Under the pieces are notes generated by a model, which ran no database searches, was not told where the DNA came from, and was given only the letters and a program-made list of their open reading frames with translations. From Patiriisocius marinistellae (GTDB taxonomy: Bacteria; Bacteroidota; Bacteroidia; Flavobacteriales; Flavobacteriaceae): a stretch of 64,000 nt of DNA. This document shows positions 4,971-60,553 of this stretch, piece after piece. The stretch is from contig NZ_BKCF01000002.1 of assembly GCF_009014635.1 (NCBI RefSeq), positions 186,001 through 250,000 of the forward strand, read 5' to 3'. The translations under genes were made by a program, and so were the position numbers. How positions within the stretch are numbered: the first letter of the stretch is position 1; every line of letters begins with the position of its first letter.

Positions 4971-4990
4971 GTATAAAATTTCCGAAGAAA
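4971..4990. repeat. Long-form copy of the TTTCCGAAG interspersed word
   Basis: GTATAAAATTTCCGAAGAAA, one base different from the 20-mers at 9031 and 12063. It lies in the convergent space between priA and the LytTR gene, just downstream of the latter's stop codon. Confidence 0.7.
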
Positions 4991-4997
4991 ATATTCT

Positions 4998-5708
4998 TTA
5001 CCTATTTGTAGAGGCAAGTGCTTCAACGAGTTCTGCCTTTCTATTCCTACTTAAAGGTAATTCTTCTTTATCTAGCTCTATTACTTTACTATTATACCGT
5101 TCTACTTTTTCAAGATTAACTATGTAAGATTTATGAATTCTTAAAAATCTATTTGAAGGAAGTAGCGCTTCAAAGGCTTTCATTGTTGAAAGAACAACCA
5201 GCGCATCATGCTCAGTTACTAGTTTAACGTAATCTCCAAGTGCCTCAATGTAACGTAATTCGTTTAAAAATACTTTCCTTTTTTTAAGGTTACTCTTCAC
5301 AAATATAAAGTCTTCCTCGTCAAACCCATCATCGTTTTTAAGCTTATAATTTGTGATAGCTTTATGGACAGCGTTAAGAAAACGTTCTTTAGAAATAGGT
5401 TTTCTTAAATAATCTACTGCATCATAATCAAATGCCTTAAAAGCATATTTTGTTTTTCCTGTGACAAAAATAATTTGAGGTTTTAATGTTAGGTCATCTA
5501 ATAAATCAAAACCAGATAATATGGGCATTTCGATATCTAAGAAAATTAAGTCAATTTCTGTTGTGGCCAATCCCATTTTGGCTTCTATAGCATTATTATA
5601 TTCAGCAACCAGATTTAAAGCAGGGTGGTTTTCAATCAATTTTACGATTGATAGGCGTTGCAATGTAGAGTCATCTACAATAGCACATTTAAGTAAGGGT
5701 TTATCCAC
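4998..5708 (-). CDS. LytTR-family response regulator
   Basis: A two-domain DNA-binding response regulator (AlgR/LytR class). With a GTG start at 5706-5708 it has 236 residues: receiver domain about 5-120 with the acidic pair IVDDS, phospho-acceptor Asp58 in FLDIEMP and Lys103 in LRKP; LytTR domain about 138-233 (FVKSNLKKRKVFLNELRYIEALGDY..., FLRIHKSYIVNL). The frame is open to an ATG at 5759, but the extra 17 residues are hydrophobic and unlike a receiver domain start, so GTG is preferred. No partner histidine kinase is adjacent; in flavobacteria the sensor is often elsewhere. Its own terminator follows. Confidence 0.86.
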   Translation of the reverse strand: MDKPLLKCAIVDDSTLQRLSIVKLIENHPALNLVAEYNNAIEAKMGLATTEIDLIFLDIEMPILSGFDLLDDLTLKPQIIFVTGKTKYAFKAFDYDAVDYLRKPISKERFLNAVHKAITNYKLKNDDGFDEEDFIFVKSNLKKRKVFLNELRYIEALGDYVKLVTEHDALVVLSTMKAFEALLPSNRFLRIHKSYIVNLEKVERYNSKVIELDKEELPLSRNRKAELVEALASTNR

Positions 5709-5834
5709 GATTAGTATGTTTATTATAGCAATAATAAGTATTTTATCGATGAAATGCAAGAAATCAAAACTTTTAACGTAAAAAAAACACGTTTAATCTG
5801 ATATTTAATTTCATTATATATTTTTAGTTTAGCG

Positions 5835-5865
5835 TTTGAGATTATCAAAATATATAGTATTTTTG
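5835..5865 (+). promoter_or_regulatory. Promoter of the rpsF-rpsR-rplI operon
   Basis: A full Bacteroidota promoter: TTTG at 5835-5838 (-33 element), 19-base spacer, TATTTTTG at 5858-5865 (-7 element). Transcription should start near 5872, giving a leader of about 46 bases. Confidence 0.8.
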
Positions 5866-5867
5866 CA

Positions 5868-5890
5868 CGCTCTTGGCAAAGCGCTGAGAG
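5868..5890 (+). promoter_or_regulatory. Leader hairpin upstream of rpsF, possible S6:S18 site
   Basis: CTCT at 5870-5873 can pair with AGAG at 5887-5890, with an alternative CGCT/AGCG pairing inside. rpsF leaders in many bacteria carry an S6:S18-binding hairpin used for autoregulation. I see the structure but not the classic CCG bulge, so the role is inferred. Confidence 0.35.
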
Positions 5891-9030: not shown

Positions 9031-9050
9031 GTTTAAAATTTCCGAAGAAA
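9031..9050. repeat. Long-form copy of the TTTCCGAAG interspersed word
   Basis: GTTTAAAATTTCCGAAGAAA, identical to the 20-mer at 12063-12082 about 3 kb away. Located mid-way in the permease-hisS intergenic region. Confidence 0.75.
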
Positions 9051-12062: not shown

Positions 12063-12082
12063 GTTTAAAATTTCCGAAGAAA
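12063..12082. repeat. Long-form copy of the TTTCCGAAG interspersed word
   Basis: GTTTAAAATTTCCGAAGAAA, identical to 9031-9050. It ends eight bases before the -7 element of the helicase promoter, so it occupies the promoter spacer. Confidence 0.75.
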
Positions 12083-13452: not shown

Positions 13453-13553
13453 CTTCGGAAATGTAACTTAAATTAAATAGTTAGTTTTTAATTTTAAATA
13501 ATCATCAAAAGTCTTATTAAACTAAATATTATGGTTGTTTTAAATTTCCGAAG
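13453..13553. repeat. Inverted pair of TTTCCGAAG words
   Basis: CTTCGGAAA at 13453-13461 and TTTCCGAAG at 13545-13553 face each other 83 bases apart in the 237-base gap after the helicase gene. The gap holds nothing else recognisable. Confidence 0.7.
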
Positions 13554-16111: not shown

Positions 16112-17125
16112 TCAATGAGAATGAGGGTTCGCAAACATTTTACAACTTACATCAAATGAATAACCATTTAATAAATCTTTCGTCTTCATTCTACGTTTTC
16201 CAGGCAATTGGATTTCAAGTATTTCAAGAACTTCTTTTGTAAGTTTTACAAAAAGTCTTTTTCCTTTTACAAATACATCACCTGTTACTTTTTCTTCGGA
16301 AATATTAATGTCTGAAAAAATTTCTTCAGTATTTAAAATTTCAGCAACATTAAAAATTTTCACCTTTTGCTTATCCTCACCTTGAATTAAATAACTCCAA
16401 GCGCCAGGATAAGGGTTTAATCCTCTCACAAAAGCATCAATTGTTTCCATCGAAGCATTCCAATCAATATAGGTATTTTCTGGAGTCAACTTAGGCGCCT
16501 CTTTTAAATCAAGAGTTTCTCCTGAAACATTCTTAGGTTGTGGAATTGTTGTTACATCACCCTTTGCGATCGCCTTAACTGTTTTAACAACAAGATTACT
16601 CCCCACTTCCATCAATGTGTCGTGTAATGTGCCTACTGTCTCGTCTCTATTTATTTGAACTTCATCTTTTAAAATTATTTCACCAGTATCAATTTTCTCA
16701 TCGATAAAAAATGTAGTAACTCCAGTTTTTGACTCCTTATTAATGATAGCCCAATTTATAGGTGCTGCACCACGATATTGTGGTAGGAGGGATGCGTGTA
16801 AATTAAAGGTGCCGTACTCTGGCATAGCCCATACAACTTTTGGTAGCATTCTAAAGGCAACTACAATATGTAGATTTGCATTAAGTGCTTTTAGTTCGGT
16901 GAGAAAATCTTCGTTTTTTAAATTAGTAGGTTGTAAAACAGGTATGTCTTGTGATACCGCATATTCTTTCACGGCACTACCTGTTAATTTACGTCCGCGA
17001 CCAGAAGGTCTATCTGGCGCAGTAATTACACCCACAATATTTTTACCTGCTTCTACTAGTGTGCTTAATACGCCTACAGCAAACTCTGGGGTTCCCATAA
17101 ATACAATGCGTAAGTCTCTTTTCAT
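16112..17125 (-). CDS. fmt: Methionyl-tRNA formyltransferase
   Basis: A 337-residue enzyme that formylates initiator Met-tRNA. N-terminal Rossmann-like catalytic domain: IVFMGTPEFAVGVL, DRPSGRGRKL, and the formyl-transfer motif NLHASLLPQYRGAAPINWAI near residue 130; a C-terminal tRNA-binding OB-like domain follows (about 210-330). It lies 51 bases downstream of recQ on the same strand and is probably the last gene of the AAA ATPase-recQ-fmt unit. One TTTCCGAAG word copy lies within its coding strand, encoding Ile-Ser-Glu. Confidence 0.96.
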   Translation of the reverse strand: MKRDLRIVFMGTPEFAVGVLSTLVEAGKNIVGVITAPDRPSGRGRKLTGSAVKEYAVSQDIPVLQPTNLKNEDFLTELKALNANLHIVVAFRMLPKVVWAMPEYGTFNLHASLLPQYRGAAPINWAIINKESKTGVTTFFIDEKIDTGEIILKDEVQINRDETVGTLHDTLMEVGSNLVVKTVKAIAKGDVTTIPQPKNVSGETLDLKEAPKLTPENTYIDWNASMETIDAFVRGLNPYPGAWSYLIQGEDKQKVKIFNVAEILNTEEIFSDINISEEKVTGDVFVKGKRLFVKLTKEVLEILEIQLPGKRRMKTKDLLNGYSFDVSCKMFANPHSH

Positions 17126-17176: not shown

Positions 17177-19075
17177 TTATACTAAATAATACTCATTTTT
17201 AATCCCAATGTTAAGTTTTCCAGCATTAACTAATAATTGCAATACCTTTAAAATTTTTGGTTCGGCAAAAGTAAGTGTTTCAGTTAATTCTCTTGAAGTC
17301 ATATGTGTCGTTTCAAGTTGCTGAAGTATTTTTTCTGAAATAAGTCTCATTTCAGCTTTGCTTACAAGTACAGTTTCACGAGCACAAACCGAACAAATGC
17401 CACAAGGATTCGCGGTAGTGTCGCCAAAATAGTTTGCAAGTTGTACGCTGCGGCAAATGGTGTCATTTTCAACATAGCCAATTAATTGTAGTACTTGCTG
17501 CTTTTTCTTATCATTATGACGATTGACTTCTTTAGCAATCCGGTTAATGGTTTTATCGTCTTCGCGAGGCAAAATGTAAGAGATAGATGCGTCTGTCGTG
17601 TGGATTTTTAAATCTACTATACCAGATTTCTCCATTTTTTTCAATGCAATTATAATTGTGTTTATAGATTGATTGGTTTTCTTTTTTATGAGTTGAAGGT
17701 CAATATTTGTTGTTGTTTCAAAAATACCGCCGTACAATCTTAAAATAGTTTTGCCGATGACCGCTTGTAATTGGTCTTCATTAAAATATTCTAGTGCTCT
17801 GTTTGAAGAAACTAGGAATTTTATTTTTGAAGTACGTCCAAATTGTTTTGACATTTGAATAATACCTAGCCTATCAAGTGTGTTTAATCCATTAAAAGTG
17901 CGTAAGGTATTTAATGAGTACGTTGTGCAATATTCTTTAAAGTCAAAAGAGTACTCTTCATTTAGCCCCTCTCCATATGGAATTTGAAGATGGCTACTTA
18001 ATTTTCTATAAATTAATTTAAGCGCTTTTGCATCTGCTAATGAGTCTATAAATTGTTTTTTAACTATTTTTTTGTCGTAGTCATTATATAAAATAGTAGC
18101 TATTGCATATTCGCCATCACGTCCAGCACGCCCAGCTTCTTGGTAGTAGCTTTCAATACTCTCTGGCAATTGAATGTGGATAACATGACGAACGTGAGCT
18201 AAATCTATCCCCATCCCAAAAGCATTTGTTGCAACAATTGTGGGTGTTACACCATTTTTCCAAGCCTCAAGTTTAGTTGTTTTTTCTTCAGAGGAAATTC
18301 CACCGTGATAAAAGTCACTTTTTATGCCTATGCTGTTTAACTCTTTACTTGTTTCAATGGTGTTTTTTCGTGTTCGTACATACACTATTGCAGCACCTTT
18401 ACTTCTTTTAAGTAATTGTTCTATTTTATATAATTTATCATCAACTTTATGAACTTGATAAGATAAATTTTCTCTAACAAAACTGTTCTTTACAATGTTA
18501 GGGAGTTCAAGTTTTAGCTCTTTTGTAAGATCCTGTAAAACTTCGGGTGTGGCTGTTGCGGTAAGGGCTATAAAAGGAACTAATGGGTGGATTTCGCGTA
18601 AGACAGTTATGTTTTTGTAAGCGGGCCTAAAATCGTTTCCCCACTGTGAGATGCAATGAGCTTCATCAATCGCAATGCAATTTACTGGCATACGTTTAAT
18701 AGCACTTTGAACTACTTCTTGCTGTAATCTTTCAGGAGAGAGGTAAAGGAATTTAAAATTTCCGTAGCATGCATTATCGAGCAATATATTTAATTGCTGA
18801 AACGAGGTGCCACTTTTAATTTCCATTGCTTTAATACCCTTCTCATTGAGCGTATTTACTTGATCTGTCATTAAAGCAACCAAAGGCGAAATTACAATAC
18901 AAATACCGTCATTAATTAGTGCAGGAATTTGAAAACAAACAGATTTTCCACCGCCTGTAGGTAACAATGCAACCGTGTCAATCCCGTTTAAAACTGAATT
19001 TATAATCTCCTCTTGTTTAGGTCTAAATGACGTGTAGCCCCAGTATTTTTCTAATATGTTTTGGGGCGTATTCAA
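17177..19075 (-). CDS. recQ: RecQ-family ATP-dependent DNA helicase
   Basis: A 632-residue 3'-to-5' DNA helicase for recombination and fork repair. Motif 0 YWGYTSFRPKQEEII, Walker A TGGGKS near residue 41, DEAH box AIDEAHCISQWGNDFRPAY near 135, GRAGRDG near 320, the zinc-binding cysteines (C...CGICSVC near 560-570) and a short winged-helix-like C-terminus. No HRDC domain is seen, so this is the shorter RecQ type common in Bacteroidota. The start ATG abuts the stop of the upstream ATPase gene with no spacer. Confidence 0.94.
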   Translation of the reverse strand: MNTPQNILEKYWGYTSFRPKQEEIINSVLNGIDTVALLPTGGGKSVCFQIPALINDGICIVISPLVALMTDQVNTLNEKGIKAMEIKSGTSFQQLNILLDNACYGNFKFLYLSPERLQQEVVQSAIKRMPVNCIAIDEAHCISQWGNDFRPAYKNITVLREIHPLVPFIALTATATPEVLQDLTKELKLELPNIVKNSFVRENLSYQVHKVDDKLYKIEQLLKRSKGAAIVYVRTRKNTIETSKELNSIGIKSDFYHGGISSEEKTTKLEAWKNGVTPTIVATNAFGMGIDLAHVRHVIHIQLPESIESYYQEAGRAGRDGEYAIATILYNDYDKKIVKKQFIDSLADAKALKLIYRKLSSHLQIPYGEGLNEEYSFDFKEYCTTYSLNTLRTFNGLNTLDRLGIIQMSKQFGRTSKIKFLVSSNRALEYFNEDQLQAVIGKTILRLYGGIFETTTNIDLQLIKKKTNQSINTIIIALKKMEKSGIVDLKIHTTDASISYILPREDDKTINRIAKEVNRHNDKKKQQVLQLIGYVENDTICRSVQLANYFGDTTANPCGICSVCARETVLVSKAEMRLISEKILQQLETTHMTSRELTETLTFAEPKILKVLQLLVNAGKLNIGIKNEYYLV

Positions 19076-19789: not shown

Positions 19790-19798
19790 TTTCCGAAG
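19790..19798. repeat. TTTCCGAAG word in a promoter spacer
   Basis: The exact 9-mer lies eight bases upstream of the -7 element of the DUF493 gene, the same arrangement as at 12071. The flanks (TGTTATATA before, CAAA after) partly resemble the long form. Confidence 0.7.
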
Positions 19799-35854: not shown

Positions 35855-37260
35855 ACAATTTGTATCTTTTTAGTTCCCAAAACAATAAGTACTACCACTA
35901 AAATTGACCATAGCATCATAAAAAACATATCTAAGATATAATTTGGTAGTACTACGGAAATTTGAGTGGGTTTATAATCGAAATCTGGAACTGATTTAAA
36001 AAAGGCATTATCTTCTTTCCAGCCCCAATTTCCTGTTTTAGAACCCCCAAAGGTTTGTTTATCATTCAACATTTTAATAAATACTCGTCTGTAATTTTCT
36101 ACTTGTAGCAAAAACTCCTGATGATGTAAATTATCGCTCGCCATAAACCCCATACTAGTATTTTGCAAGGAAATAAAAGGGTTAACCATACCGCCTAACT
36201 GAAAGTTTTTTTTCTGCTTTTGAAGTATATCCCGGTTATTTCCAAAATGTTTATCCCAAACACTATTTCCATAATCTTCATCGGCCTGCATTCGCATACC
36301 GTCGAAATTTATAGGTAGTTGCGACAAACTATCTACACCATATTCTTTAAGCACTTTTTCTTTTAAAGCGATACCTCTTTTATCGGCAGGATTATGCCCA
36401 TCCAATCCTTTTGAACGGTCTTCTTTCATCGCAGATTGAAATTCGTTTCTACTAGGTAATGAATTCCATTTTTCTACAGAACTCATTAATATATTTGGTA
36501 AAAACAGCGTCCATATTATCCAAATACCCAGCATTGAAGTTAAAGAGAGCGTAGCATTTTGCCACCGTGCAGAAAAGAAAACAGTGAGTCCGCTAATAAT
36601 AAAATAGTACAGACAATAAGTCAAGAAGAATAAACCGGTTCTGATTAAAATTTCGGAGTTTAAACTTTGAAAATTAAGAACACCATAGACTAAAAGGATA
36701 AAGGTTAATAAGAGTACTCCATACAACCAAACTGATAGCGCTTTGGATAAAATAATTTGTAAAGGTTTGGCGCCTTGCAATACGAGTAATTTTAGGCGTC
36801 CGGTTTGTTTCTCGTTACTCACCGTGTTAAACGCTAAGAAAATTAATAATAAGGGCACAATGTATTGTAATAAAAGTGAGGGTTTTAGTTTTCCAAATCG
36901 CGAGACGGCTTGCATTTGTGATGCTTCGGAATGTATTATTTCATTTTGTACATGTCCCTCTACTCGGAGTACATTTCCTGTAACTGTGTTTACTCCTTCA
37001 TCGAGACTGCTTAATAAGTTGGAAGGTTTAAACACATAAGTTCCGTAATGTGCAGCACTGTGTGGATTCATTTCATCAATACTAACCCATTGTTGCCGAA
37101 CGTGATCTTTGGCATTTTGATGGGTTTGCTGTTGTTTTTGTGTTTGATAATTACCTAAAAAAACAGAGAGCAGCAAGATTGCAATAAAAGCAATACTAAT
37201 ACTTAAAAATATGCGGCTACGGACAAAAAAGCGCCATTCGTTTTTAATGATTTGCAACAT
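35851..37260 (-). CDS. ABC-2-type permease with DUF3526, first copy
   Basis: A permease of 469 residues from ATG 37260 (MLQIIKNEWRFFVRSRIF, the conserved amphipathic entry). It has an N-terminal helix, a large outer domain, GRLKLLVLQGAKPLQIILSKALSVWLYGVLLL (cytoplasmic coupling region) and five more helices; the C-terminus ends with one hydrophobic segment. The longer frame upstream to 37323 overlaps the ATPase gene by 53 bases and lacks similarity. Paralogous to the next gene. Substrate unknown. Confidence 0.86.
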   Translation of the reverse strand: MLQIIKNEWRFFVRSRIFLSISIAFIAILLLSVFLGNYQTQKQQQTHQNAKDHVRQQWVSIDEMNPHSAAHYGTYVFKPSNLLSSLDEGVNTVTGNVLRVEGHVQNEIIHSEASQMQAVSRFGKLKPSLLLQYIVPLLLIFLAFNTVSNEKQTGRLKLLVLQGAKPLQIILSKALSVWLYGVLLLTFILLVYGVLNFQSLNSEILIRTGLFFLTYCLYYFIISGLTVFFSARWQNATLSLTSMLGIWIIWTLFLPNILMSSVEKWNSLPSRNEFQSAMKEDRSKGLDGHNPADKRGIALKEKVLKEYGVDSLSQLPINFDGMRMQADEDYGNSVWDKHFGNNRDILQKQKKNFQLGGMVNPFISLQNTSMGFMASDNLHHQEFLLQVENYRRVFIKMLNDKQTFGGSKTGNWGWKEDNAFFKSVPDFDYKPTQISVVLPNYILDMFFMMLWSILVVVLIVLGTKKIQIV

Positions 37261-38521: not shown

Positions 38522-39299
38522 TTAACTCTCGAATATGTTTACAGGAGCATTTCCGTAGCTTAGAAACTGTTCTTGAAATTCTGTTAAATTAAAAGTATCT
38601 CCTTTTAAAGTTTTCATTTCATCTCTAAGGGAATAAATTTCAGAAAAACCGGTGAAGTAAGAACTGAGTTGCGCAGAAGTTAACGTGACTCTCATCCATT
38701 TTTCTTCTGCTTCAGTATTTTCTTGAAACGCTTCTGCAATCATCAATTTTTAGCTTTTTCTTTTTGGAGATTAAGCACATGATAACTATAATCCAGAATT
38801 GTATTTGTCACAGATTTCAATTGCCATTTATACCACATTAACCATATTTCTGGAGAATAATTATAGCCTTCTTCTATCATCATTATTTCAGTATAGTTTG
38901 GCCAGCCTTCTATCATTGAACCATTAGCTAGTACAGGTTTAATGATACTTGGAGATTATTTACCCTACACAAGCTGCGTATAATGACCAGGAATTCCTTC
39001 ATTTATATTCAAGATTTGAAGGATAAAATGATTGTATTCTCTTAAAAATTTTCGGCTTCTTTTTCGTTGTATGCGTCAAGTGGAGTCACATTGTAATACG
39101 TGTCCTTTCCTTTTTCTTAAGGGCCGGGGCTAGATACAGATGCACCGCTTACTCCACGCATATGTATAGGCATTTCTCGCACCTCTAATGGTTTAGACGG
39201 GTCTTGTGTTAATAGGTCGTTTTTCTTTTACAAATGTAGCAAGGATGGGTATCTGTCGTTTTATTTCATCAACAAAGTCTTCACGATCCACATGTTTTT
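38522..39299 (-). pseudogene. Decayed DUF885 family gene (C-terminal remnant)
   Basis: Translating the minus strand in all three frames recovers one continuous DUF885 C-terminal half broken by frameshifts and stops. In order: DEIKRQIPILATFVKEKR, (shift) LLTQDPSKPLEVREMPIHMRG, GASVSSPGP, stop, GKDTYYNVTPLDAYNEKEAENF, stop and shift, NINEGIPGHYTQLV, stop, SMIEGWPNYTEIMMIEEGY, stop, and MIAEAFQENTEAEEKW...LSYGNAPVNIF. EGIPGHY and the C-terminal LSYGNAPV are family hallmarks. At least six lesions and loss of the N-terminal half show that it is not functional. DUF885 proteins are carboxypeptidase-like. It borders the symporter gene. Confidence 0.85.
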
Positions 39300-39322: not shown

Positions 39323-41005
39323 TCACTTATTCTCCTTATTTCCAATAATACCTTGTAGTATAAAAGCGATAAAAATTACTAGAGCAGATCCAGCAAGATT
39401 TAACCATAAATATGGCATTAAGTCAATCCACCATATATAGACAATAATAGCTTGGGTAATGATGGCTGCGATAAATACAGCTCTACTTTTAACGTATCTA
39501 AAAAAGAAAGCGAGAAGGAAAATGCCTAATACATTTCCGTAGAAAATAGAACCTATTATATTAACAAGTTCGATTAAATTTTCAAATAGATTGGCTACGC
39601 AAGCTACACCAATTGCAATAGCTCCCCAGAGCATGGTAAACCATTTTGAAGCATTTACATAATGTTTATCGCTCCTACCTTTTTTGTTACGTTTGTAAAG
39701 ATCGATTGTTGTGGTAGAACCTAAGGCATTTAATTCAGAAGCTGTTGAGGACATCGCGGCGCTTAATATTACTGCGAGTAATAATCCTATTAGTCCTTTT
39801 GGAAGATTGTTTAAAATAAAATGAATAAAGACATAATCTTTGTCATTAACTTCTGCGTCTGGATTTGCTTTTTTAATGGTTTTTTTTGCTTGATCTCTTA
39901 ATGAAGCTTCTTGCGTATTAAGTGTAGCAATTTCAGAAAGTATACCACTTTTATCATCTGTATCTTTCATTACAGAGAACGTGAGTTGCTTGGCTCTAAT
40001 TTCTTTTTCTATTTGTGTTTTTTCAGCTTCTAATGATTGATATTCTTGTGCAAACTCAGATTCCATGACATCTTTTACAGAGCTAGGATTAAAGTGTAAT
40101 GGAGATGTGTTAAATTGATAAAAAACAAATACCATAACACCTACGAGCAATATAAAGAATTGCATAGGTACTTTTAAGAGGCCGTTAAAAATCATCCCCA
40201 TTTGCATTTCCTTCATTGAACGCCCACTAAGGTAACGTTGTACTTGACTTTGATCTGTGCCAAAATAGGAGAGGGCTAAAAAACTACCTCCAATGATTCC
40301 ACTCCAAAAGGTATATTTATTTTCTAAGTTAAATGAAAAATCAAGGACATCTAGTTTGCCACTCGCACCAGCAATTTGCATTGCTTTGTCAAAGTTAATA
40401 TCCAGTGGGAGGTAATTGAGTATGATTAAAAAAGCGATAAACATCCCGCCAAAAATGACACCCATTTGTTGCTTTTGGGTAACACTTACAGCTTTTGTAC
40501 CACCACTTACGGTATAGATAATAACGAGAACACCAATAATAATATTTAACTGTATTAGGTCCCAACCAAGCACGGCAGATAAAATAATAGCTGGTGCAAA
40601 AATGGTAATCCCTGCGGCGAGTCCTCGTTGAATTAAAAATAGTATTGCAGTAAGTGTTCGTGTTTTTAAATCGAATCGCGTTTCTAAATATTCGTAAGCG
40701 GTAAAAACTTTAAGCCTGTGATAAATGGGAATAAATACAAGACAAATAATTACCATAGCAATGGGTAATCCAAAGTAAAATTGTACAAACCCCATCCCAC
40801 TATGAAAAGCCTGTCCTGGTGTAGAGAGGAATGTTATAGCACTAGCTTGTGTAGCCATTACACTTAGTCCAATTGTCCACCAGCGAGAGTCACTACCGCC
40901 TTTAAGGTAGTCTGTAACGTTTTGACTTCCGCGCGCTTTGTAAGTTCCATAGAGAACGATAAATACTAATGTACCAATAAGGATGTACCAATCAATTTGC
41001 TCCAT
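39323..41005 (-). CDS. Sodium/solute symporter (SSS family)
   Basis: A 560-residue polytopic transporter using the Na+ gradient. It opens DWYILIGTLVFIVLYGTYKARGSQNVTDYLKGGSDSRWWTIGLSVMATQASAITFLSTPGQAFHSGMGF with this family's gate residues, and IQRGLAAGITIFAPAIILSAVLG, FGTDQSQVQRYLSGRSMKEMQ and SAAMSSTASELNALGSTTTIDLY. A hydrophilic insertion of about 95 residues (about 295-390), partly coiled coil, separates two helices, which is longer than in most SSS proteins. It follows a 42-residue membrane ORF with zero spacing. Substrate unknown; the PIG-L neighbour hints at an amino sugar or glycoconjugate. Confidence 0.9.
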   Translation of the reverse strand: MEQIDWYILIGTLVFIVLYGTYKARGSQNVTDYLKGGSDSRWWTIGLSVMATQASAITFLSTPGQAFHSGMGFVQFYFGLPIAMVIICLVFIPIYHRLKVFTAYEYLETRFDLKTRTLTAILFLIQRGLAAGITIFAPAIILSAVLGWDLIQLNIIIGVLVIIYTVSGGTKAVSVTQKQQMGVIFGGMFIAFLIILNYLPLDINFDKAMQIAGASGKLDVLDFSFNLENKYTFWSGIIGGSFLALSYFGTDQSQVQRYLSGRSMKEMQMGMIFNGLLKVPMQFFILLVGVMVFVFYQFNTSPLHFNPSSVKDVMESEFAQEYQSLEAEKTQIEKEIRAKQLTFSVMKDTDDKSGILSEIATLNTQEASLRDQAKKTIKKANPDAEVNDKDYVFIHFILNNLPKGLIGLLLAVILSAAMSSTASELNALGSTTTIDLYKRNKKGRSDKHYVNASKWFTMLWGAIAIGVACVANLFENLIELVNIIGSIFYGNVLGIFLLAFFFRYVKSRAVFIAAIITQAIIVYIWWIDLMPYLWLNLAGSALVIFIAFILQGIIGNKENK

Positions 41006-41277: not shown

Positions 41278-43770
41278 TCACTTCCCAATCGAAATTAAAT
41301 TAGCAAACAATCTATATGCTCCAGGGACACCTGCTGGCAACTCTCTAAAAAAGCTGAGTCCAGTGTAAATATAATGCCCTTTGCCATATTGAGCAACTAG
41401 AAGTGATCCTTTTGAAATTGAAGCTCCTTTATCTTTCATTCCTAAAATAGGAGTAAACTCTTTGCCCCATTCCTCAGGAAAATATAAACCTCTTTCTTGC
41501 ACCCAATTTTCAAAATCAGCTTCGGTTATTTTGTTGGGAGTATTTAAAATTTTATGGTCTTTTGCTAATAACTGTACTTCGCTAAACTCATCAGTTACAC
41601 GGTCACGGGATAATTTTAACTCGTAAGGTGCTAAATCTTGAGTCACTAATCTATGCGATGTATTGTACTGTAAAATTAAAGTTCCACCATTTTCAACATA
41701 ACCATCAAGCGCTTTTTTTGCAAATGCCAATTCAGGTACCGTATTATAAGCTCTAATTCCTACTACGATGGCATCAAATTGTTTAAGATTTTCTTCGGAA
41801 ATTTCTGCTGCTAAAATTGTCGTAACATCATACCCAATTTGTTTTAAACTTTCAGGAATAGCATCTCCAGCACCGTTTATATAACCAATGTTTTGTCCCT
41901 TTTTTTCAATTGAAATGCGTGCCACTTTAGCCTCAGAAGGCAATAAAACAGATTGATATGGAATGTGGTCGTAGTCAATTAAAACTAATTCATTTTCATA
42001 ATAACGGTCGCCTACTTGAACTACTGGTTTCAATAATCCTTCGCTTTGAGTTACAGGTGGAGTTACTGTAAAATTTAGTGTTGTGCTTTCGCCAGAACGT
42101 TCTAAAGAAAATGGGAGGGAAGCTGGAGTTATTTTCCAGCCCGCTGGGGCATTTAATAGTACCGTACCACTCACATTATCTCTTCCTCCGCGCACTGTTA
42201 CTGGAACTGTTTTTGAATTTTTATTTGCAAAAATCAATACCTTTTCAGCAATGCTGGATGTTGCTTCGGGTAGTATTTGTAAAGGCCTGTAAACTTCACC
42301 ATCAACAGGATCATTAAATTTGAAAACAACATCACGAACAATGCTTAATGACGCGCGACCTATTTGCAAATTAAAAACTATTTGTTCTGGTGCTGGCGTC
42401 TCTGGCAGCCCAATCATATCTTTAGGCGCATTGTACATTCCTAAAGTACCCTTTTTATTTAACCAATAAGCCGTTGAGGGCATGTCGTTTTCTGAAATGA
42501 GCTGCACTTCTAGTTCCGTCTTTTCATTATTAGTCAAAGTAACAACGTTGCTATTAAGCGCTTTTCCCGAAACAGTTTTAATACTATTTAGCACAACAGG
42601 TTGTCCGCTACGATTAATGGCTTCAATATTCACTTTAAAAGAAGCTTTTGGGTTAATAGTTTCGGTTTCTGAAATGGCTTCTAAAAAGATTCCGCCGCAG
42701 TCTAAAATCAATTTTTCTAACTGCGGAAGTTTAATGGATTTCCAGTGGTTGTCTTTTGATAATTTCAGCAGTTCATAAGCCTGTACCAATTGCGGTATCA
42801 TTGCAGATGGATCTTTAAAATTGAAATTTTCTGCTAGTGGATTAAGAATGTTTCCAATAGCAGCTCCACCATCAATGCGTGACCATGAAGTATTAATACC
42901 GTCAAATATATTTGTATTATCGGTAGGGAAATCTCCTTTTAAAAATTCTAAATATTCAGTTTGATTTCCGCGGGATCCTGTACTTCCAAAACCTTGACTT
43001 TTATGCATGCTTCGGCTTAAAGATGCGATTTCGCCATTTGATAATCCAAGGGAAGGGTAATAATTTCCTGTTTCAACCGAGACTAATTTTGATTTGTCTG
43101 CCTCCTCAAATTTTTCTCTACTTCCGTAGAACCACCAAGAGGTGTTAAACATTAGACGTTTAGGTTGCCAAGTTCCAAATGTTTTTGCCGTCTCAGGATA
43201 TTTTGTTGCATCGTTAACTAAGTCAAATGCTTCAAAACTTAACATTGCTGAAGAGGTATGATGACCGTGCGTACTTCCAGGACTGCGATGATCAAAACGA
43301 TTGACTATAACATCTGGCTTAAATTTACGAATAGCTCTAACTACATCGCTCAGCACCTCTTCTTCGTTCCAGATTGCCAAAGTCTCATCTGGGTGTTTTG
43401 AGTACCCAAAATCATTAGCACGTGTAAATAATTGCTGTCCGCCATCTGTGCGACGAGCAGCTAATAATTCCTGCGTGCGAATTACACCGAGCAATTCTCT
43501 AATTTCTGGACCTACAAGATTTTGTCCTCCATCGCCACGCGTTAATGACAAATATGCTGTGCGTGCATGAACATCATTTGCTAAATAAGAAATTAAACGC
43601 GTATTTTCATCATCAGGATGTGCTGCGACGTAAAGTGCGCTTCCTAGAAAATTAAGGTTTTGTAATTCGTGATATATTTGTGAACTAGTAGGTTTTTTAG
43701 GCTGTTGCCCGAGGGAGGTTGCGACAATTCCTATTAAAAAAATAATGGAAGCAAAGCGTAATTTTATCAT
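41278..43770 (-). CDS. PIG-L family deacetylase with C-terminal amidotransferase-like domain
   Basis: An 830-residue exported protein (signal peptide to about residue 20). Residues about 38-250 form the LmbE/PIG-L zinc deacetylase: AAHPDDENTRLISYLAND (zinc ligands His, Asp, Asp), SLTRGDGGQN, and HRSPGSTHGHHTSSA. A beta-rich middle follows (about 370-600). The C-terminus (about 630-830) resembles a class I glutamine-amidotransferase/ThuA-like fold: IGYINGAGDAIPESLKQIGYDV and FDAIVVGIRAYN. Such enzymes act on N-acetylated sugars. It lies upstream of the symporter genes and has its own promoter. Confidence 0.88.
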   Translation of the reverse strand: MIKLRFASIIFLIGIVATSLGQQPKKPTSSQIYHELQNLNFLGSALYVAAHPDDENTRLISYLANDVHARTAYLSLTRGDGGQNLVGPEIRELLGVIRTQELLAARRTDGGQQLFTRANDFGYSKHPDETLAIWNEEEVLSDVVRAIRKFKPDVIVNRFDHRSPGSTHGHHTSSAMLSFEAFDLVNDATKYPETAKTFGTWQPKRLMFNTSWWFYGSREKFEEADKSKLVSVETGNYYPSLGLSNGEIASLSRSMHKSQGFGSTGSRGNQTEYLEFLKGDFPTDNTNIFDGINTSWSRIDGGAAIGNILNPLAENFNFKDPSAMIPQLVQAYELLKLSKDNHWKSIKLPQLEKLILDCGGIFLEAISETETINPKASFKVNIEAINRSGQPVVLNSIKTVSGKALNSNVVTLTNNEKTELEVQLISENDMPSTAYWLNKKGTLGMYNAPKDMIGLPETPAPEQIVFNLQIGRASLSIVRDVVFKFNDPVDGEVYRPLQILPEATSSIAEKVLIFANKNSKTVPVTVRGGRDNVSGTVLLNAPAGWKITPASLPFSLERSGESTTLNFTVTPPVTQSEGLLKPVVQVGDRYYENELVLIDYDHIPYQSVLLPSEAKVARISIEKKGQNIGYINGAGDAIPESLKQIGYDVTTILAAEISEENLKQFDAIVVGIRAYNTVPELAFAKKALDGYVENGGTLILQYNTSHRLVTQDLAPYELKLSRDRVTDEFSEVQLLAKDHKILNTPNKITEADFENWVQERGLYFPEEWGKEFTPILGMKDKGASISKGSLLVAQYGKGHYIYTGLSFFRELPAGVPGAYRLFANLISIGK

Positions 43771-44960: not shown

Positions 44961-45560
44961 TTAAGTCGTTTGTTTTTTAGAAACTAACTCTAGTAGTGTT
45001 TCATTAACAAGTCTTGTAGGTAAGCCCATAACATTGAAGAAACAACCCTCTATTTTCTCAATACCTACATAGCCTAGCCAATCTTGAATTCCATAGCTTC
45101 CAGCTTTATCAAAAGGCTTGCACGTGTTGAGGTAGTATTCAATTTGTGCTTCGGAAATTTCTTTAAAATAAACCTTCGTAACATCATATACTGTTTTTTG
45201 CCAATCTCTCGACGTGAAACAAACCGAAGTGAATACCTCGTGCATTTGTCCGCTAAGGCTATTGAGCATTACTTTTGCATCCTCAAAATCTGTAGGTTTT
45301 CCTATGGCTTTATCGTTGTGCCAGACTATAGTGTCGCTAGTAATGACTACATCATTCTCTTTCAAATCTGTGAACACTGATGCTTTTAATTCTGCCAAGT
45401 AATTAGTAATCTGTTCTCGTTTTAAATTTGAAGAAAAGACCTCCTCAACTTCACGAACGTCAATAGTAAAATCTAAATCTAGTTCTTTAAAAAAGTATTG
45501 CCTACGAGGACTTCCCGAAGCAAGGATGATATTGTGATCTTTTAATTTTTCTTTTAACAT
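44961..45560 (-). CDS. maf: Maf-family nucleotide pyrophosphatase
   Basis: A 199-residue housekeeping NTP pyrophosphatase that hydrolyses modified or canonical nucleoside triphosphates. Signature IILASGSPRRQYFFKEL (residues 10-26), VVITSDTIVW, GKPTDFEDAKVMLNSLSGQMHEVFT and KPFDKAGSYGIQDW. Normal length. It lies nine bases after the UbiA-family gene in the DUF2520-KdsC-UbiA-Maf unit. Confidence 0.93.
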   Translation of the reverse strand: MLKEKLKDHNIILASGSPRRQYFFKELDLDFTIDVREVEEVFSSNLKREQITNYLAELKASVFTDLKENDVVITSDTIVWHNDKAIGKPTDFEDAKVMLNSLSGQMHEVFTSVCFTSRDWQKTVYDVTKVYFKEISEAQIEYYLNTCKPFDKAGSYGIQDWLGYVGIEKIEGCFFNVMGLPTRLVNETLLELVSKKQTT

Positions 45561-47085: not shown

Positions 47086-47838
47086 TTATTTTCTTTTTAA
47101 TATACTCCTAGTCAGTGTCATGTACACTTTTTCTTGAAGCTCTGCTTCAATCATTGATAAGTGTTTTTCAATAGTCACAATATCGCCTCTATTTGCTGGT
47201 CCGGTCTGTGCTTTTGACGGAGAAAGTGTTTCAATTTTTTTCGCAGTTTCAGAAATCAATGGTTTTAATAATTCAAAATCTAAGCTTTTTTCTTTTAGAA
47301 TATCTTCGGAAATATGATACAATTCATTCACAAAATTATTTACAAAAACAGCAGCAAGATGAATTTGTGCTCGCTCACTTGAATTTATATCGACCACTTT
47401 ATTTGAAATTAATTCTCCTAATTTTCGAAGTAATTTTAAATCATTTTCTTTTTCTGCTTCAATGCAAATAGGGATAATTTTAAAGTCAACTTCAGTGTTT
47501 TTAGAAAAGGTTTGTAGCGGGTAAAAAATACCGCGGTGGTGTTTTTTAGAAATAGTATTCATTGCAACTCCGCCAGATGTGTGAACAACAAGTTTGTCTT
47601 TTAATTTAAGTTCTTTAGTAAAGCCCTTAATTGCATCATCTGGAATTGCGACAATATAAACATCTGCAGAGGAATCAATCTCAGAAATTTTTGAAATAAG
47701 AGGTGTTCCTGCTTTTGTAGTTGTTTCTGTTGTGTTTCGGGTGTATCCTTGTATCACATTAACTCCCTTAGTTTCATGGAAGATTTTATGTAGATGTTGG
47801 CCTACATTTCCGAAGCCTAAAATAACGACACGTATCAT
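47086..47838 (-). CDS. Rossmann-like DUF2520 protein
   Basis: A 250-residue protein resembling F420/NADP reductases: N-terminal nucleotide-binding ILGFGNVGQHLHKIF, ADVYIVAIPDDAIKGFTKEL, HTSGGVAM, and a C-terminal helical DUF2520 domain (RAQIHLAAVFVNNFVNELYHISEDIL, about 165-190). Function is not established. First gene of the operon ending at the lipoprotein; divergent from ccsBA with about 90 bases between. Confidence 0.88.
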   Translation of the reverse strand: MIRVVILGFGNVGQHLHKIFHETKGVNVIQGYTRNTTETTTKAGTPLISKISEIDSSADVYIVAIPDDAIKGFTKELKLKDKLVVHTSGGVAMNTISKKHHRGIFYPLQTFSKNTEVDFKIIPICIEAEKENDLKLLRKLGELISNKVVDINSSERAQIHLAAVFVNNFVNELYHISEDILKEKSLDFELLKPLISETAKKIETLSPSKAQTGPANRGDIVTIEKHLSMIEAELQEKVYMTLTRSILKRK

Positions 47839-51469: not shown

Positions 51470-51478
51470 CTTCGGAAA
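51470..51478. repeat. TTTCCGAAG word between DUF6122-like and aldehyde dehydrogenase genes
   Basis: CTTCGGAAA on the plus strand, placed in the 28-base gap just before the ATG of the DUF6122-like gene. Confidence 0.65.
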
Positions 51479-51495
51479 TATAATACGGATATCTC

Positions 51496-52857
51496 TTAGA
51501 ATTTCATTACCCATCTTAAAAATTTGAGTTTCATTTCAGAATATGGCCCATATTTTAAGGGTAATTCAAGCCAAGTTGGTTTATCGAGAATACTTTTATA
51601 ATGAGTAAATGTGTCAAAACCAGCTTTACCGTGGTAATTACCCATTCCGCTGTGACCCACTCCACCAAAGGGTAGGTGTGGATTCGTAATATGCATTACA
51701 GCTTCATTAACAGCGCCACCTCCAAACGAAATTTCTTTAAAAATCTTCTTCTTAATTTTAGAGCTCGAAGTAAATACATAACAAGATAAAGGTCGAGTAA
51801 GACTATTTACCTTAGTAATTGCCTCGTCTATAGTGTTATAAGGAATAACAGGGAGAATAGGTCCAAATATTTCTTCTTGCATCACATCATCTTCAAAAGT
51901 AACATCCTTAAGAACTGTAGGTTGAATATAACGTTCGCTCTTTTTTAAACTTCCTCCAAAACAAACGTTATCTTGATTTATCATTGAAGCCAATCTTTCA
52001 AAATTATCCTCATTTATAATTTGAAGATAGTTGCCATTCTCAAAACTGTAGTCAGCTTCGGAAATTTCTGCTTTTAAAATCTCGATAAATTTGTTTTCTA
52101 TTTTTTTATCCACCATAATATAATCTGGCGCGATACATGTTTGTCCTGCATTTAAAAATTTTGCCCAAACCAAACGTTTTACGGTCATTTTTAAATTAGC
52201 ATCTTCTGTTACAAACGTAGGACTTTTACCTCCCATTTCTAAAGTTACTGGCGTAAGGTTTTCTGCAGCAGCTTTGTAAATAATTTTCCCAACTTTTGTG
52301 CTACCCGTAAAAAATATTTTATCAAATTTTTGTTTAAGTAGCTCAGTAGTTTCGTCGACACCACCTTCTATAACTTTTAGAAAAGAAGAATCAAAATTAT
52401 TATTTATCAACTTCGCCATAATTGCCGAAGTTCTTGAAGGCAATTCACTAGGTTTTAAAATAATAGTGTTTCCCGCAGCAATAGCTGCAATAACAGGAGC
52501 GAGGGATAATTGATATGGGTAATTCCAAGCACCGATAACTAAGCAGACACCTAAGGGTTCTGAGATAATGTAGCTCTTTGCGGGGAAGTTAGTTAGATTT
52601 GTTTTTACTTTTTGTTTGCGTGCCCATTTCCAGATTTTCTTTTTAGCTTCCTCTATATCATTAAAGAGCAATGCCATCTCGGTAACTGAATTTTCAAACT
52701 TAGATTTTTTGAAATCAGCATAAATAGCTTCATCAAGAGCCTCTTGGTTTGTTTTCAATAATTGTGAGAGTTTGTCTAATTGAGCAACTCTAAAAGCAAG
52801 GTCTTTTGTTTGATGCGTATTAAAAAAATTGCGTTGAGAGGAGATGATTTGTTCCAT
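51496..52857 (-). CDS. Aldehyde dehydrogenase
   Basis: A 453-residue NAD(P)-dependent aldehyde dehydrogenase. Visible: GAWNYPYQLSLAPVIAAIAAGNTIILKPSELPSRTSAI (cofactor pocket), FTGSTKVGKII, general base Glu in TLEMGGKSPTFV, nucleophile Cys in NAGQTCIAPDYI, and EEIFGPILPVI. The C-terminal LKFLRWVMKF helix and short overall length are like class 3 ALDH3 enzymes, which oxidise fatty aldehydes. Substrate not determined. Own promoter. Confidence 0.93.
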   Translation of the reverse strand: MEQIISSQRNFFNTHQTKDLAFRVAQLDKLSQLLKTNQEALDEAIYADFKKSKFENSVTEMALLFNDIEEAKKKIWKWARKQKVKTNLTNFPAKSYIISEPLGVCLVIGAWNYPYQLSLAPVIAAIAAGNTIILKPSELPSRTSAIMAKLINNNFDSSFLKVIEGGVDETTELLKQKFDKIFFTGSTKVGKIIYKAAAENLTPVTLEMGGKSPTFVTEDANLKMTVKRLVWAKFLNAGQTCIAPDYIMVDKKIENKFIEILKAEISEADYSFENGNYLQIINEDNFERLASMINQDNVCFGGSLKKSERYIQPTVLKDVTFEDDVMQEEIFGPILPVIPYNTIDEAITKVNSLTRPLSCYVFTSSSKIKKKIFKEISFGGGAVNEAVMHITNPHLPFGGVGHSGMGNYHGKAGFDTFTHYKSILDKPTWLELPLKYGPYSEMKLKFLRWVMKF

Positions 52858-55967: not shown

Positions 55968-55976
55968 CTTCGGAAA
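55968..55976. repeat. TTTCCGAAG word upstream of the second DEAD-box gene
   Basis: CTTCGGAAA on the plus strand in the 257-base gap between the helicase and rdgB; the gap otherwise holds only the helicase promoter and leader. Confidence 0.65.
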
Positions 55977-58752: not shown

Positions 58753-58761
58753 ACTACAAAT

Positions 58762-59712
58762 TTAAATATTCCATTTTATACCTGTTTCCTTTTCCGAAAG
58801 TTCCCAAAACTTTTCAATCACAGCTTTATCTTTTGCGTGTGGTTTTAATGGATGAGCTCCAACGGGACCTACCGTATTCATTCTTTTTGTTGGACCATAA
58901 AAACCACGCTGGTCAAGGTTTAATTCTGTTGCACACATTAATTGCGGATACGCACCTTTTTCAGCAGATTGTACTAGTGGTGATAATTTCATTAATTGCC
59001 AAACAAATCGTGTCATTAAACTACCGCTGGTTTTAATCAATGAAGTTCGTGAAGCCCCTGGATGGCATGCATACACTTTAACATCGGTTTTGCCCGCTTC
59101 TTTTAATCGGTCTTGCAGTTCGTAAACACACATAATTTGTGCTAATTTACTTTGGCTATATACACCATTTGGACTGTAATTCTTGTCCCAATTTATATCG
59201 TCAAATTGTATAGTTTTAATACCCATATTATACCCCATACTGCCAACAGTTACTATGCGTCCTTTAGATTTTTCTATTAATTGAAATAATAAAGCCTGAA
59301 GAGCAAAATTCCCAAAATGGTTGGTGCCCATTTGACTCTCAAAGCCATCAACTGTTAGTTTTTGTTTAGGTACTTGAGCAATTGCTGCGTTACATATTAG
59401 TGCATCTATTTGAAGAACTGTTTTAAGAACTGTTGACGCTGCTTTTTTTACAGATGCTTGTTCTGCCAAGTCCATTTGTATATTCGATACGTCTATAGAA
59501 GTGCCGAGTTCTTCCTTTAAAGTCGTTATTGTATTCTCAGCTTTTTTTGTATTACGATTGAGCATCACAACTTTTGCTCCCTTAGATAGTAGTATTTTCG
59601 TTGCTTCAAATCCTGTTCCGCTCGTAGTACCTGTTATGACATAGGTTTTGCCAATTAAGTTTCCAATTCTATTAGGTGTCCACCCTTTTTTACCAAATTG
59701 ATTTTCTTTCAT
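58762..59712 (-). CDS. SDR family oxidoreductase, protochlorophyllide-reductase-like
   Basis: A 316-residue SDR: TYVITGTTSGTGFEATKILLSKGAKVVMLNRNTKKAENTI (NADP-binding, with the Arg that favours NADPH), DLAEQASV, ICNAAIA, catalytic region VTVGSMGYNMGI and the YSQSKLAQIM motif (Tyr-x-x-x-Lys intact). The overall form resembles the retinol dehydrogenase/protochlorophyllide oxidoreductase-like group, longer than classic SDR. Substrate unknown. Its promoter starts the three-gene unit with AraC and membrane protein. Confidence 0.9.
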   Translation of the reverse strand: MKENQFGKKGWTPNRIGNLIGKTYVITGTTSGTGFEATKILLSKGAKVVMLNRNTKKAENTITTLKEELGTSIDVSNIQMDLAEQASVKKAASTVLKTVLQIDALICNAAIAQVPKQKLTVDGFESQMGTNHFGNFALQALLFQLIEKSKGRIVTVGSMGYNMGIKTIQFDDINWDKNYSPNGVYSQSKLAQIMCVYELQDRLKEAGKTDVKVYACHPGASRTSLIKTSGSLMTRFVWQLMKLSPLVQSAEKGAYPQLMCATELNLDQRGFYGPTKRMNTVGPVGAHPLKPHAKDKAVIEKFWELSEKETGIKWNI

Positions 59713-59738
59713 TTTGCAAATTGTTAAAATTAATATTG

Positions 59739-59746
59739 CAAAGGTA
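59739..59746 (-). promoter_or_regulatory. -7 promoter element of the SDR-AraC-membrane operon
   Basis: Reads TACCTTTG on the minus strand, 26 bases before the ATG. Confidence 0.65.
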
Positions 59747-59899
59747 GGAGTGAAGCAAACTTAATTATTTATACAGATTTTCAAATGTTGTATACTTTTT
59801 AGTTTGAGTATGCAAAATAGTTGGTGATTTTTGTAAATATTGAACTCTTTTTACAATAACCGTTTTATTTATTTGTAAAAAAGGTGCGAAAAAACAATA

Positions 59900-60553
59900 T
59901 TATTTATCTTCATAAAAACGTTCCACTATTTCAGCACTACTTTTAATGGTATTTTTCGCCCATTCAATACGGAGTTCATTTTTTTCATCTTCGGAAATTT
60001 GCCAATCAACATCACTTTTCCGAAGCCTTGTAACAACGTGTTGTAATACAATAGCGGCTGAAACTGAAATATTTAAACTTTCTGTAAATCCATACATGGG
60101 GATTTTCAGGGAAACATCGGCATTATTTAAAACAACGTCAGATAATCCTTCTTTCTCTTTTCCGAAGAAAAAAGCACTTTTTTTTGTTACATCAAAATCA
60201 TGCAACTCAACAGATTTTCCATGAGGAGATGTTGCTACAATTTGATAGCCTTCAGTCTTTAGGTCCTCTATACATGTTGATATGGAATTGTAGCGGTTGA
60301 GATTGACCCATTTTTGAGACCCCATCGCTATCTCTTTGTCTATTTGTTTTGAGTTAATTTCTTCGACAATACTTAAGTCTTGTACGCCAAACACATCACA
60401 ACTTCGCATAACTGCGCTGGTGTTGTGCAATTGATAAACATCCTCTGTAACCACATGAAAATGGCGTGTGCGTTGTTTTAAAATTGACTCAAATCGCTCT
60501 ATTCTACGCTCGGTTAAATAGCTTTGTAGGTGTTCTAGAAGTCCTAAATCCAA
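59900..60553 (-). CDS. trmH: TrmH-family RNA 2'-O-methyltransferase
   Basis: A 217-residue SPOUT methyltransferase probably acting on tRNA Gm18. Motifs: ERIERFESILKQRTRHFHVVTEDVYQLHNTSAVMRSCDVFGVQDLSIVE at the N-terminus, FFFGKEKEGLSDVVL (cofactor loop), and the SPOUT knot IPMYGFTESLNISVSAAIVLQHV. Start codon is TTG. Three TTTCCGAAG words (59989, 60017, 60159) fall inside this gene, two of them encoding Phe-Gly-Lys-like or Arg-Lys residues. Confidence 0.88.
   Translation of the reverse strand: MDLGLLEHLQSYLTERRIERFESILKQRTRHFHVVTEDVYQLHNTSAVMRSCDVFGVQDLSIVEEINSKQIDKEIAMGSQKWVNLNRYNSISTCIEDLKTEGYQIVATSPHGKSVELHDFDVTKKSAFFFGKEKEGLSDVVLNNADVSLKIPMYGFTESLNISVSAAIVLQHVVTRLRKSDVDWQISEDEKNELRIEWAKNTIKSSAEIVERFYEDK

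What the first reader, a model, noticed from the sequence alone, without database searches (positions are those of the whole stretch)
4979..60167. Strongly over-represented 9-mer TTTCCGAAG across the window
Exact copies of TTTCCGAAG on either strand: plus strand at 4979, 9039, 12071, 13545, 19790, 32908, 47807, 60017 and 60159; minus strand (CTTCGGAAA) at 13453, 16294, 41793, 45149, 47304, 51470, 52056, 55968 and 59989. That is 18, with nine in each orientation. With about 34% G+C, base composition predicts roughly 0.4, so the excess is about 40-fold. Variants with T in position 7 (TTTCCGTAG) occur at 18759, 35952 (reverse), 38550 and 39534. Eight exact copies lie between genes although only about one tenth of the window is intergenic; in genes the word falls in different frames, giving Ile-Ser-Glu, Phe-Gly-Asn or Phe-Gly-Lys, so it is not a codon-usage effect. 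Possible roles: a Chi-type recombination site, a DNA uptake signal, a site for a chromosome-organising or methylating protein, or a promoter-associated element.
Basis: partly seen in the sequence, partly recalled or inferred. Interest (0 to 1): 0.8.

Follow-up and report, generated by a model that had tools for sequence, protein, structure and literature searches.

The report
Paired DNA-address motif in marine Flavobacteriaceae
A bacterium of the Flavobacteriaceae carries about a thousand copies of one short DNA word, most simply read as a 'take up my own kind of DNA' label like those of Haemophilus and Neisseria, but in a different phylum, without the usual uptake-pilus platform protein, and with neighbouring copies strongly tending to face away from each other.

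Summary
The excess is real and genome-wide. In this genus the signal is longer, about [T/G]TnAnATTTCCGAAG plus A-rich DNA, and 21 of 30 one-base variants of the 10-mer show under 5-fold excess. Copies are balanced between strands and lie between genes about 3.6 times more often than chance, without preference for gene starts or ends. They are denser in shared than species-specific genes (weak test) and in less conserved genes. Enrichment is patchy (27 of 299 family genomes); sampled other genera carry a relaxed form, TTCCGAAG. New: close neighbours face outward (CTTCGGAAA...TTTCCGAAG). In 1.2 Mb, pairs under 250 bp are 47 outward, 6 inward, 11 tandem; five enriched species of the genus total 85:6 at gaps of 8-68 bp. 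Best reading: a DNA uptake signal, which I found proposed for Bacteroidota only as untested A-rich k-mers, in a genome without the type IV pilus platform family. Uptake was not tested. A polar chromosome-organising site remains possible. Chi, promoter, terminator, mobile-element and codon-usage readings fit poorly.

The parts
4979..4987 (+). motif copy, intergenic
9039..9047 (+). motif copy, intergenic
12071..12079 (+). motif copy, intergenic
13453..13461 (-). motif copy, intergenic; left half of outward pair (92 bp start to start)
13545..13553 (+). motif copy, intergenic; right half of outward pair
16294..16302 (-). motif copy, inside formyltransferase gene
19790..19798 (+). motif copy, intergenic
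32908..32916 (+). motif copy, inside short-chain dehydrogenase gene
41793..41801 (-). motif copy, inside PIG-L family gene
45149..45157 (-). motif copy, inside Maf-family gene
47304..47312 (-). motif copy, inside DUF2520 gene; also present in Patiriisocius marinus L065
47807..47815 (+). motif copy, inside DUF2520 gene, near its start
51470..51478 (-). motif copy, intergenic
52056..52064 (-). motif copy, inside aldehyde dehydrogenase gene
55968..55976 (-). motif copy, intergenic
59989..59997 (-). motif copy, inside SpoU methylase gene; left half of outward pair (28 bp start to start)
60017..60025 (+). motif copy, right half of outward pair
60159..60167 (+). motif copy, same gene
18759..18767 (+). 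variant TTTCCGTAG (an enriched near-miss class)
35952..35960 (-). variant TTTCCGTAG
38550..38558 (+). variant TTTCCGTAG
39534..39542 (+). variant TTTCCGTAG

Best explanation
The word is the core of a DNA uptake signal. In this genus the signal reads about [T/G]T[A]A[A/C]ATTTCCGAAG followed by A-rich DNA. A surface receptor of a natural transformation system would prefer DNA carrying it. DNA of the same species is then imported and recombined more often, so copies build up wherever a gene tolerates them (molecular drive), in either strand, in shared more than acquired DNA, with a species-group dialect. Shown: excess, specificity, strand balance, placement, patchy and dialect-like distribution, and outward pairing. 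Inferred: that a receptor reads it and that uptake is the process. Most speculative: that the receptor or its entry process is polar, so that two outward-facing copies make one two-way unit. The machinery would not be a type IV pilus, whose platform family was not found. It could be the Riemerella-type set (DUF5689 surface protein, adjacent barrel-like protein, ComEC): a DUF5689 gene with a long neighbour carrying a weak regulatory-domain match, and a ComEC gene, are present in this genome.
For: Genome-wide 967 against 42 for the reversed word; ATTTCCGAAG 139 against 0.82 expected in 464 kb. Of its 30 one-base variants, 21 are under 5-fold; the 9 above are first base to G or T, T3 to G, C5 to A, A7 to T or C, and three resting on 2-4 copies (positions of the 9-mer). 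Flanks carry positioned A/T preferences. Strands near balance. 135 of 375 copies are intergenic in 1.2 Mb where 10% is intergenic, without preference for gene orientation among 64 tested. Density is 0.329 against 0.250 per kb for shared and species-specific gene territory in G000, and 0.258 against 0.140 in G001; within shared genes of G000 it falls 0.32, 0.30, 0.19, 0.105 per kb with rising conservation. The longest empty gap of the 1.2 Mb (24 kb) is a metal-resistance region with an integrase-like gene. Patchy by genus: 27 of 299 family genomes, in 18 genera, have at least 150 copies and three times the control (my reading of the table). Dialect: five other enriched genera, pooled, favour TTCCGAAG (229 against 32) with a relaxed base before it. 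DUF5689 in 271 of 299 family genomes; G000 has it next to a frame of about 952 aa and has ComEC. Riemerella transforms with ComEC and several proteins unlike known uptake machinery, one of them DUF5689, and R. columbina DNA competes better than R. anatipestifer or E. coli DNA (PMC8459023, PMC7965970; sections read). Neisserial DUS lie in permissive core regions and are rare in acquired DNA (PMC2397512, passages).
Against: No uptake was measured. No receptor is identified: DUF5689 is in 5 of the 6 non-enriched members of the genus and ComEC in 6 of 6, so gene presence does not explain which species are enriched. The T4P platform family PF00482 is absent from G000 and present in 5 of 25 enriched and 5 of 34 non-enriched genomes. 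The outward pairing has no counterpart that I know for uptake signals at these distances and is not predicted by plain uptake. Sites aligned between G000 and G001 were no more often identical than control words (24 of 151 against 4 of 29 comparisons, identical pairs counted from both sides). The depletion in species-specific genes is modest. In other genera the intergenic fraction is only 25 of 202, about background.
Confidence: 0.5

Rival explanations
1. A polar chromosome-organising site: a DNA-binding protein or loop-extruding complex is loaded or stopped at the motif in one direction, and outward pairs act as two-way boundaries.
For: Strong orientation rule between neighbours. Counting an outward pair up to 1 kb as one unit, 10% of units are closer than 1 kb against 21% in 1000 random simulations merged the same way. 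Some pairs lie at what look like the same places in two or three species (by eye). Pairs occur inside genes as well as between.
Against: Species of the same genus lack the excess, and so does most of the family, which is odd for a basic chromosome function. Strands near balance in blocks of either GC skew. No helical phasing of the spacing.
Confidence: 0.2
2. A Chi-type site that switches a RecBCD- or AddAB-like nuclease.
For: Abundant, patchy, denser in shared genes.
Against: No strand preference: 68 plus and 75 minus copies in the 400 kb of negative GC skew. Inward and outward pairs should be equivalent but are 14 to 82 within 1 kb. Enrichment is about 170-fold for the 10-mer and flanks are A/T-biased, unlike the Chi sites I recall. 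Nuclease genes were not searched.
Confidence: 0.07
3. A transcription element: promoter part, bidirectional terminator or RNA hairpin with a UUCG loop.
For: Intergenic excess; the minus-strand word contains CTTCGG; some outward pairs bracket terminator-like hairpins (read by eye).
Against: 98 of 162 copies are inside genes in both senses and several frames; intergenic copies follow intergenic length for convergent, divergent and tandem genes. DNA after the right arm is A-rich, not T-rich. Most pairs are too far apart for a simple stem.
Confidence: 0.06
4. A mobile or repeat element (MITE-like ends) or a sequence by-product of codon usage.
For: Inverted ends at short spacing. Some aligned sites have gaps: 38 of 151 comparisons with G001 have a gap inside the word, and several intergenic sites align to gaps in relatives.
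Against: Sequence between paired copies looks unrelated (by eye). Sites in genes differ from aligned relatives mostly by substitutions. Copies lie in several frames of both strands and between genes.
Confidence: 0.03
5. A self-marking or anti-restriction site read by an unknown defence or modification enzyme.
For: Patchy distribution, missing from a metal-resistance region.
Against: Modified sites are not normally driven to such excess (recalled). No enzyme was sought.
Confidence: 0.06

Closest known systems
Uptake signal sequence (USS) of Pasteurellaceae, AAGTGCGGT with A/T-rich flanks (motif recalled)
   Same: 9-10 base core, of order a thousand copies, both strands, positioned A/T flanks, dialects between lineages (USS features recalled)
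   Different: Different phylum and word; no T4P platform family found; outward pairs over tens to hundreds of bases without phasing; 0.29 copies per kb
DNA uptake sequence (DUS) of Neisseria, GCCGTCTGAA, read by the minor pilin ComP (receptor recalled)
   Same: Placement in permissive core regions, rare in acquired DNA (PMC2397512, passages read); dialects (recalled)
   Different: Neisserial inverted pairs are closely spaced and act as terminators (same passages); here many pairs are wide, also inside genes, and lack a T run; no pilus platform family
Riemerella natural transformation (Flavobacteriales)
   Same: Possible machinery: DUF5689 protein with an adjacent carboxypeptidase-regulatory-domain protein, and ComEC; R. 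columbina prefers own DNA
   Different: The R. columbina paper tabulated its commonest k-mers, A- or T-rich runs, as putative DUS/USS and left their function open; no comparable specific word was reported
Chi, KOPS and other polar genome motifs (recalled)
   Same: Short, abundant, orientation-dependent
   Different: Those lean to one strand per replichore; this does not

Membership tests
DUS/USS-type uptake signal | Extreme excess of one short word over a Markov model, genome-wide | tested here: met
   (Markov test on 464 kb; whole genome against the reversed word)
DUS/USS-type uptake signal | Near-equal on both strands and both skew regions | tested here: met
   468/499; 85:90 and 90:110 by skew (1.2 Mb)
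DUS/USS-type uptake signal | Excess between genes and in less conserved genes | tested here: met
   (own gene caller); not met for intergenic excess in five other genera
DUS/USS-type uptake signal | Rare in recently acquired DNA | tested here: inconclusive
   Lower in species-specific genes (30 sites in 142 kb against 194 in 663 kb, summed); longest gap is a metal-resistance region; other gaps were only partly annotated
DUS/USS-type uptake signal | Lineage dialects of the word | tested here: met
   but four non-enriched genomes show no word at all
DUS/USS-type uptake signal | Raises DNA uptake or transformation | not testable with these tools
   needs competition assays
Neisserial/Pasteurellaceae uptake system | Type IV pilus machinery | tested here: not met
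   PF00482 absent from G000; 10 of 59 genomes overall; other pilus genes not searched
Riemerella-type transformation system | DUF5689 protein with adjacent carboxypeptidase-regulatory-domain protein, plus ComEC | tested here: inconclusive
   DUF5689 and ComEC met; the neighbour (about 952 aa; 916 aa of it scanned) has only a sub-cut-off domain hit, 25.3 bits against 32.2; HhH, DUF1343, DprA and ComF genes not searched
Chi site | Bias to one strand per replichore | tested here: not met
   GC skew as the stand-in for replichore
Chi site | Cognate RecBCD/AddAB nuclease responds | not testable with these tools
   nuclease genes not searched
Mobile element ends (MITE) | Shared internal sequence | tested here: not met
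   by eye
Mobile element ends (MITE) | Clean empty sites in relatives | tested here: inconclusive
   Substitutions in genes, gaps at some intergenic sites; relatives are about 70% identical

The most novel reading that the evidence does not exclude
A polar DNA address signal in Bacteroidota: each copy works in one direction, and two copies facing outward at 25 to about 1000 bp form one two-way unit. It is read by a pilus-independent, Riemerella-type (DUF5689/barrel/ComEC) importer. This would be the first demonstrated uptake signal in the phylum that I know of, and the first uptake signal with a built-in orientation rule.
Probability: 0.3. Interest if true: 0.92.

Novelty: new variant of a known kind. 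Interest (0 to 1): 0.78.

Why it matters
Uptake signals are known to me from only a few lineages, chiefly Neisseriaceae and Pasteurellaceae (recalled), read through type IV pili. A signal of this kind in Flavobacteriaceae would point to sequence-guided gene exchange in a group abundant in the sea and give a handle to find the unknown receptor of the Riemerella-type importer. The orientation rule is testable and is not explained by any model I know of uptake-signal evolution.

Tried and rejected
Helical phasing of pair spacing: suggestive in 35 pairs (best period 10.8), gone with 102 listed pairs from five species (the lists were cut short for some genomes); rejected. Type IV pilus genes as the explanation: PF00482 does not track enrichment. 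Presence of DUF5689 or ComEC as the switch: both are in non-enriched relatives too. A different dialect in non-enriched genomes: 100 kb each of G035, G229, G069 and G130 gave no word of comparable excess, so not every member has such a signal. Position-by-position conservation: examples looked strong, but against control words there was no excess, so I claim only that some pairs recur (by eye). Terminator reading of the pairs: wrong downstream bases and mostly too wide. RNA families in the window: only a tRNA. Literature: ten searches. One search found 21 papers holding the word or its complement; the 20 listed look unrelated by title and were not read. One search found 102 papers, 15 listed. 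The only proposal of uptake signals in Bacteroidota that I saw is the k-mer table of PMC7965970. The library lacks many subscription papers.

Results against, in one place: in a 400 kb sample of G001 the outward excess is clear below 100 bp (4 outward, 0 inward, 1 tandem) but not at 100-300 bp (2, 3, 1) and slight from 300 to 1000 bp (5, 2, 4). The inward counterpart (78-138 bp) was not searched; there the comparison is with densities only. Outside the genus the outward bias at 8-68 bp gaps is weaker, 52 to 25 in 23 genomes with about 34 expected of each (my arithmetic). Gene calls are from my own dicodon script. The reversed word is an imperfect control: several non-family genomes have few control hits with 70-170 copies. 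Genomes for searches were picked by me from the and 11 tables.
Full report
OBSERVATION. Dinucleotide shuffles give 0.52 on average, 4 at most; a second-order Markov model gives 0.42. The window is G000:C2:186001-250000 of a 3.34 Mb genome in 30 contigs, and the whole genome has 468 plus 499 copies against 24 plus 18 for the reversed word. By a protein search the organism is a Flavobacteriaceae; named hits include Patiriisocius marinus and Ulvibacter (records of its own genome may be left out there).

THE SIGNAL. In 464 kb (400 kb of contig C1 plus the window) the 10-mer ATTTCCGAAG occurs 139 times against 0.82 expected, and the 9-mer 162 times against 2.8. Of the 30 one-base variants of the 10-mer, 21 are under 5-fold. 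The nine above are: first base to G or T, T3 to G, C5 to A, A7 to T or C (9-mer positions), and three that rest on 2 to 4 copies. With 375 copies in 1.2 Mb the flanks read T-rich at -18 to -13, T/G at -6, T at -5, A at -3, A/C at -2, A at -1 (84%), and A-rich from +9 to +17.

PLACEMENT. In 1.2 Mb, 135 of 375 copies are intergenic while 90% of the DNA is coding (my own gene caller). In the first 464 kb, 64 intergenic copies follow the length of tandem, convergent and divergent intergenic DNA. Copies in genes lie in both senses and several frames. Plus and minus copies are 85 and 90 in the 100 kb blocks of negative GC skew, 90 and 110 in those of positive skew (summed). Gene territory shared with species G001 is denser than species-specific territory (0.329 against 0.250 per kb in G000; 0.258 against 0.140 in G001), and among shared genes of G000 density falls from 0.32 to 0.105 per kb from the least to the most conserved quartile; G001 shows a less regular fall (0.227, 0.286, 0.087, 0.119). 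The longest empty stretch of the 1.2 Mb (24 kb) holds heavy-metal efflux genes and an integrase-like gene below its curated cut-off; a 12 kb gap is a polysaccharide cluster and a 13.5 kb gap holds mixed genes. Two further long gaps that I listed were not annotated.

OUTWARD PAIRS. Within 250 bp, pairs in 1.2 Mb are 47 outward (CTTCGGAAA...TTTCCGAAG), 6 inward, 11 tandem; shuffling orientations on fixed positions gives 16, 16 and 32, with at most 28 outward in 1000 shuffles. From 250 to 1000 bp: 35, 8 and 15, against 22, 22 and 44 for random positions. The plain spacing of neighbours is as random expects (27% under 1 kb); it is the orientation that is ordered. Inside single genes up to 700 bp: 32 outward, 2 inward, 9 tandem. 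Near-miss copies show the same tendency around exact ones: opposite-strand near-misses within 200 bp are 21 on the outward-pair side and 8 on the other. A tight class at 25-28 bp stands out (10 pairs at 24-30 bp in 1.2 Mb). For gaps of 8-68 bp over whole genomes the five enriched species of the genus have 85 outward and 6 inward; 23 other genomes have 52 and 25. For 78-138 bp start to start the five species have 34, 19, 8, 14 and 4 outward pairs (G000, G001, G002, G009, G005), where densities predict about 4.3, 2.9, 0.8, 2.1 and 0.9 (expectation is my arithmetic; inward pairs at this distance were not searched). In a 400 kb sample of G001 the excess is clear only below 100 bp. Several pairs recur at what look like matching places in two or three species, for example G000:C4:231403, G001:C2:146572 and G009:C31:115690 (by eye). 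There is no helical phasing.

EVOLUTION. In the genus, of 11 genomes, five are enriched (967, 817, 440, 666, 326 copies) and six are not (18 to 57); the six are genomes of 1.7-2.1 Mb, 77-90% complete. In the family, 27 of 299 genomes in 18 genera have at least 150 copies and three times the control (my reading of the table). Of 179 genomes from other families of the phylum none exceeds 172 copies. Five other enriched genera, pooled, favour TTCCGAAG (229 against 32) with T, C or less often A before it and AA after it, without the ATTT flank (weakest in G110) and without intergenic excess (25 of 202): a dialect or a weaker relative. Four non-enriched genomes have no comparable word. In genes, aligned relatives differ from the sites mostly by substitutions; several intergenic sites align to gaps. 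Identity of aligned sites between G000 and G001 is no higher than for control words.

MECHANISM. Excess of this size, strand balance, permissive placement, scarcity in some acquired DNA and lineage dialects are together what uptake signals show (placement from PMC2397512, passages read; the rest recalled). This genome lacks the type IV pilus platform family. Riemerella anatipestifer transforms with ComEC, DprA, ComF, RecA and four unfamiliar proteins including a DUF5689 protein next to a carboxypeptidase-regulatory-domain protein (PMC8459023, outline and sections 19-21). R. columbina DNA competes better than foreign DNA, and its authors tabulated the commonest k-mers, A- or T-rich runs, as putative signals of open function (PMC7965970, sections 14 and 16). 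G000 has the DUF5689 gene beside a frame of about 952 residues, 916 of which were scanned and gave a sub-cut-off regulatory-domain hit, and a ComEC gene. These are leads: the same genes occur in non-enriched relatives, so they do not explain the pattern by presence alone. The outward pairing is the unexplained part. One reading that fits both the deficit of tandem and inward neighbours and the excess of outward ones is that each copy acts in one direction, so a second copy adds something only when it faces away; a polar loading or boundary site on the chromosome would fit too.

VERDICT. Observation confirmed and extended. Most likely an uptake signal of a new kind (confidence 0.5); a polar chromosome-organising site is the main rival (0.2).

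Noticed in passing
G000 sample (L089-L108 and window); G007 L187-L189; G010 L190-L193; G002 L180-L183; G009 L184-L186: The related word ATTTCAGAA is about 5- to 11-fold over expectation in G002, G009 and the non-enriched G007 and G010 and 7-fold in G000; possibly an older or relaxed dialect.
   Followed up: partly
L145-L146 (G000:C1:1063115-1087379): 24 kb without the motif: heavy-metal efflux and P-type ATPase genes with an integrase-like gene.
   Followed up: partly
G001:C1:998595-998706; G000:C2:176576-176669; G009:C25:86315-86434: Some outward pairs bracket a terminator-like hairpin with a T run (read by eye).
   Followed up: no
G293:C12:929389, G064:C4:339953, G000:C1:912460: An outward pair with similar sequence, perhaps in the same gene, in three genera (by eye).
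   Followed up: no
G288 L194-L203; G110 L208-L211: Other strongly repeated 10-mers (GCAGTGAGCA and CGGTTAAGGC types), probably local repeat arrays.
   Followed up: no
window 29241-30020: HipA-like kinase gene inside the longest motif-free part of the window, 19.8-32.9 kb.
   Followed up: no
L216, L217 (G009, G001) against L224, L218 (G000, G002): The main DUF5689 frame has two such domains (742-745 aa) in G001 and G009 and one in G000 and G002.
   Followed up: no
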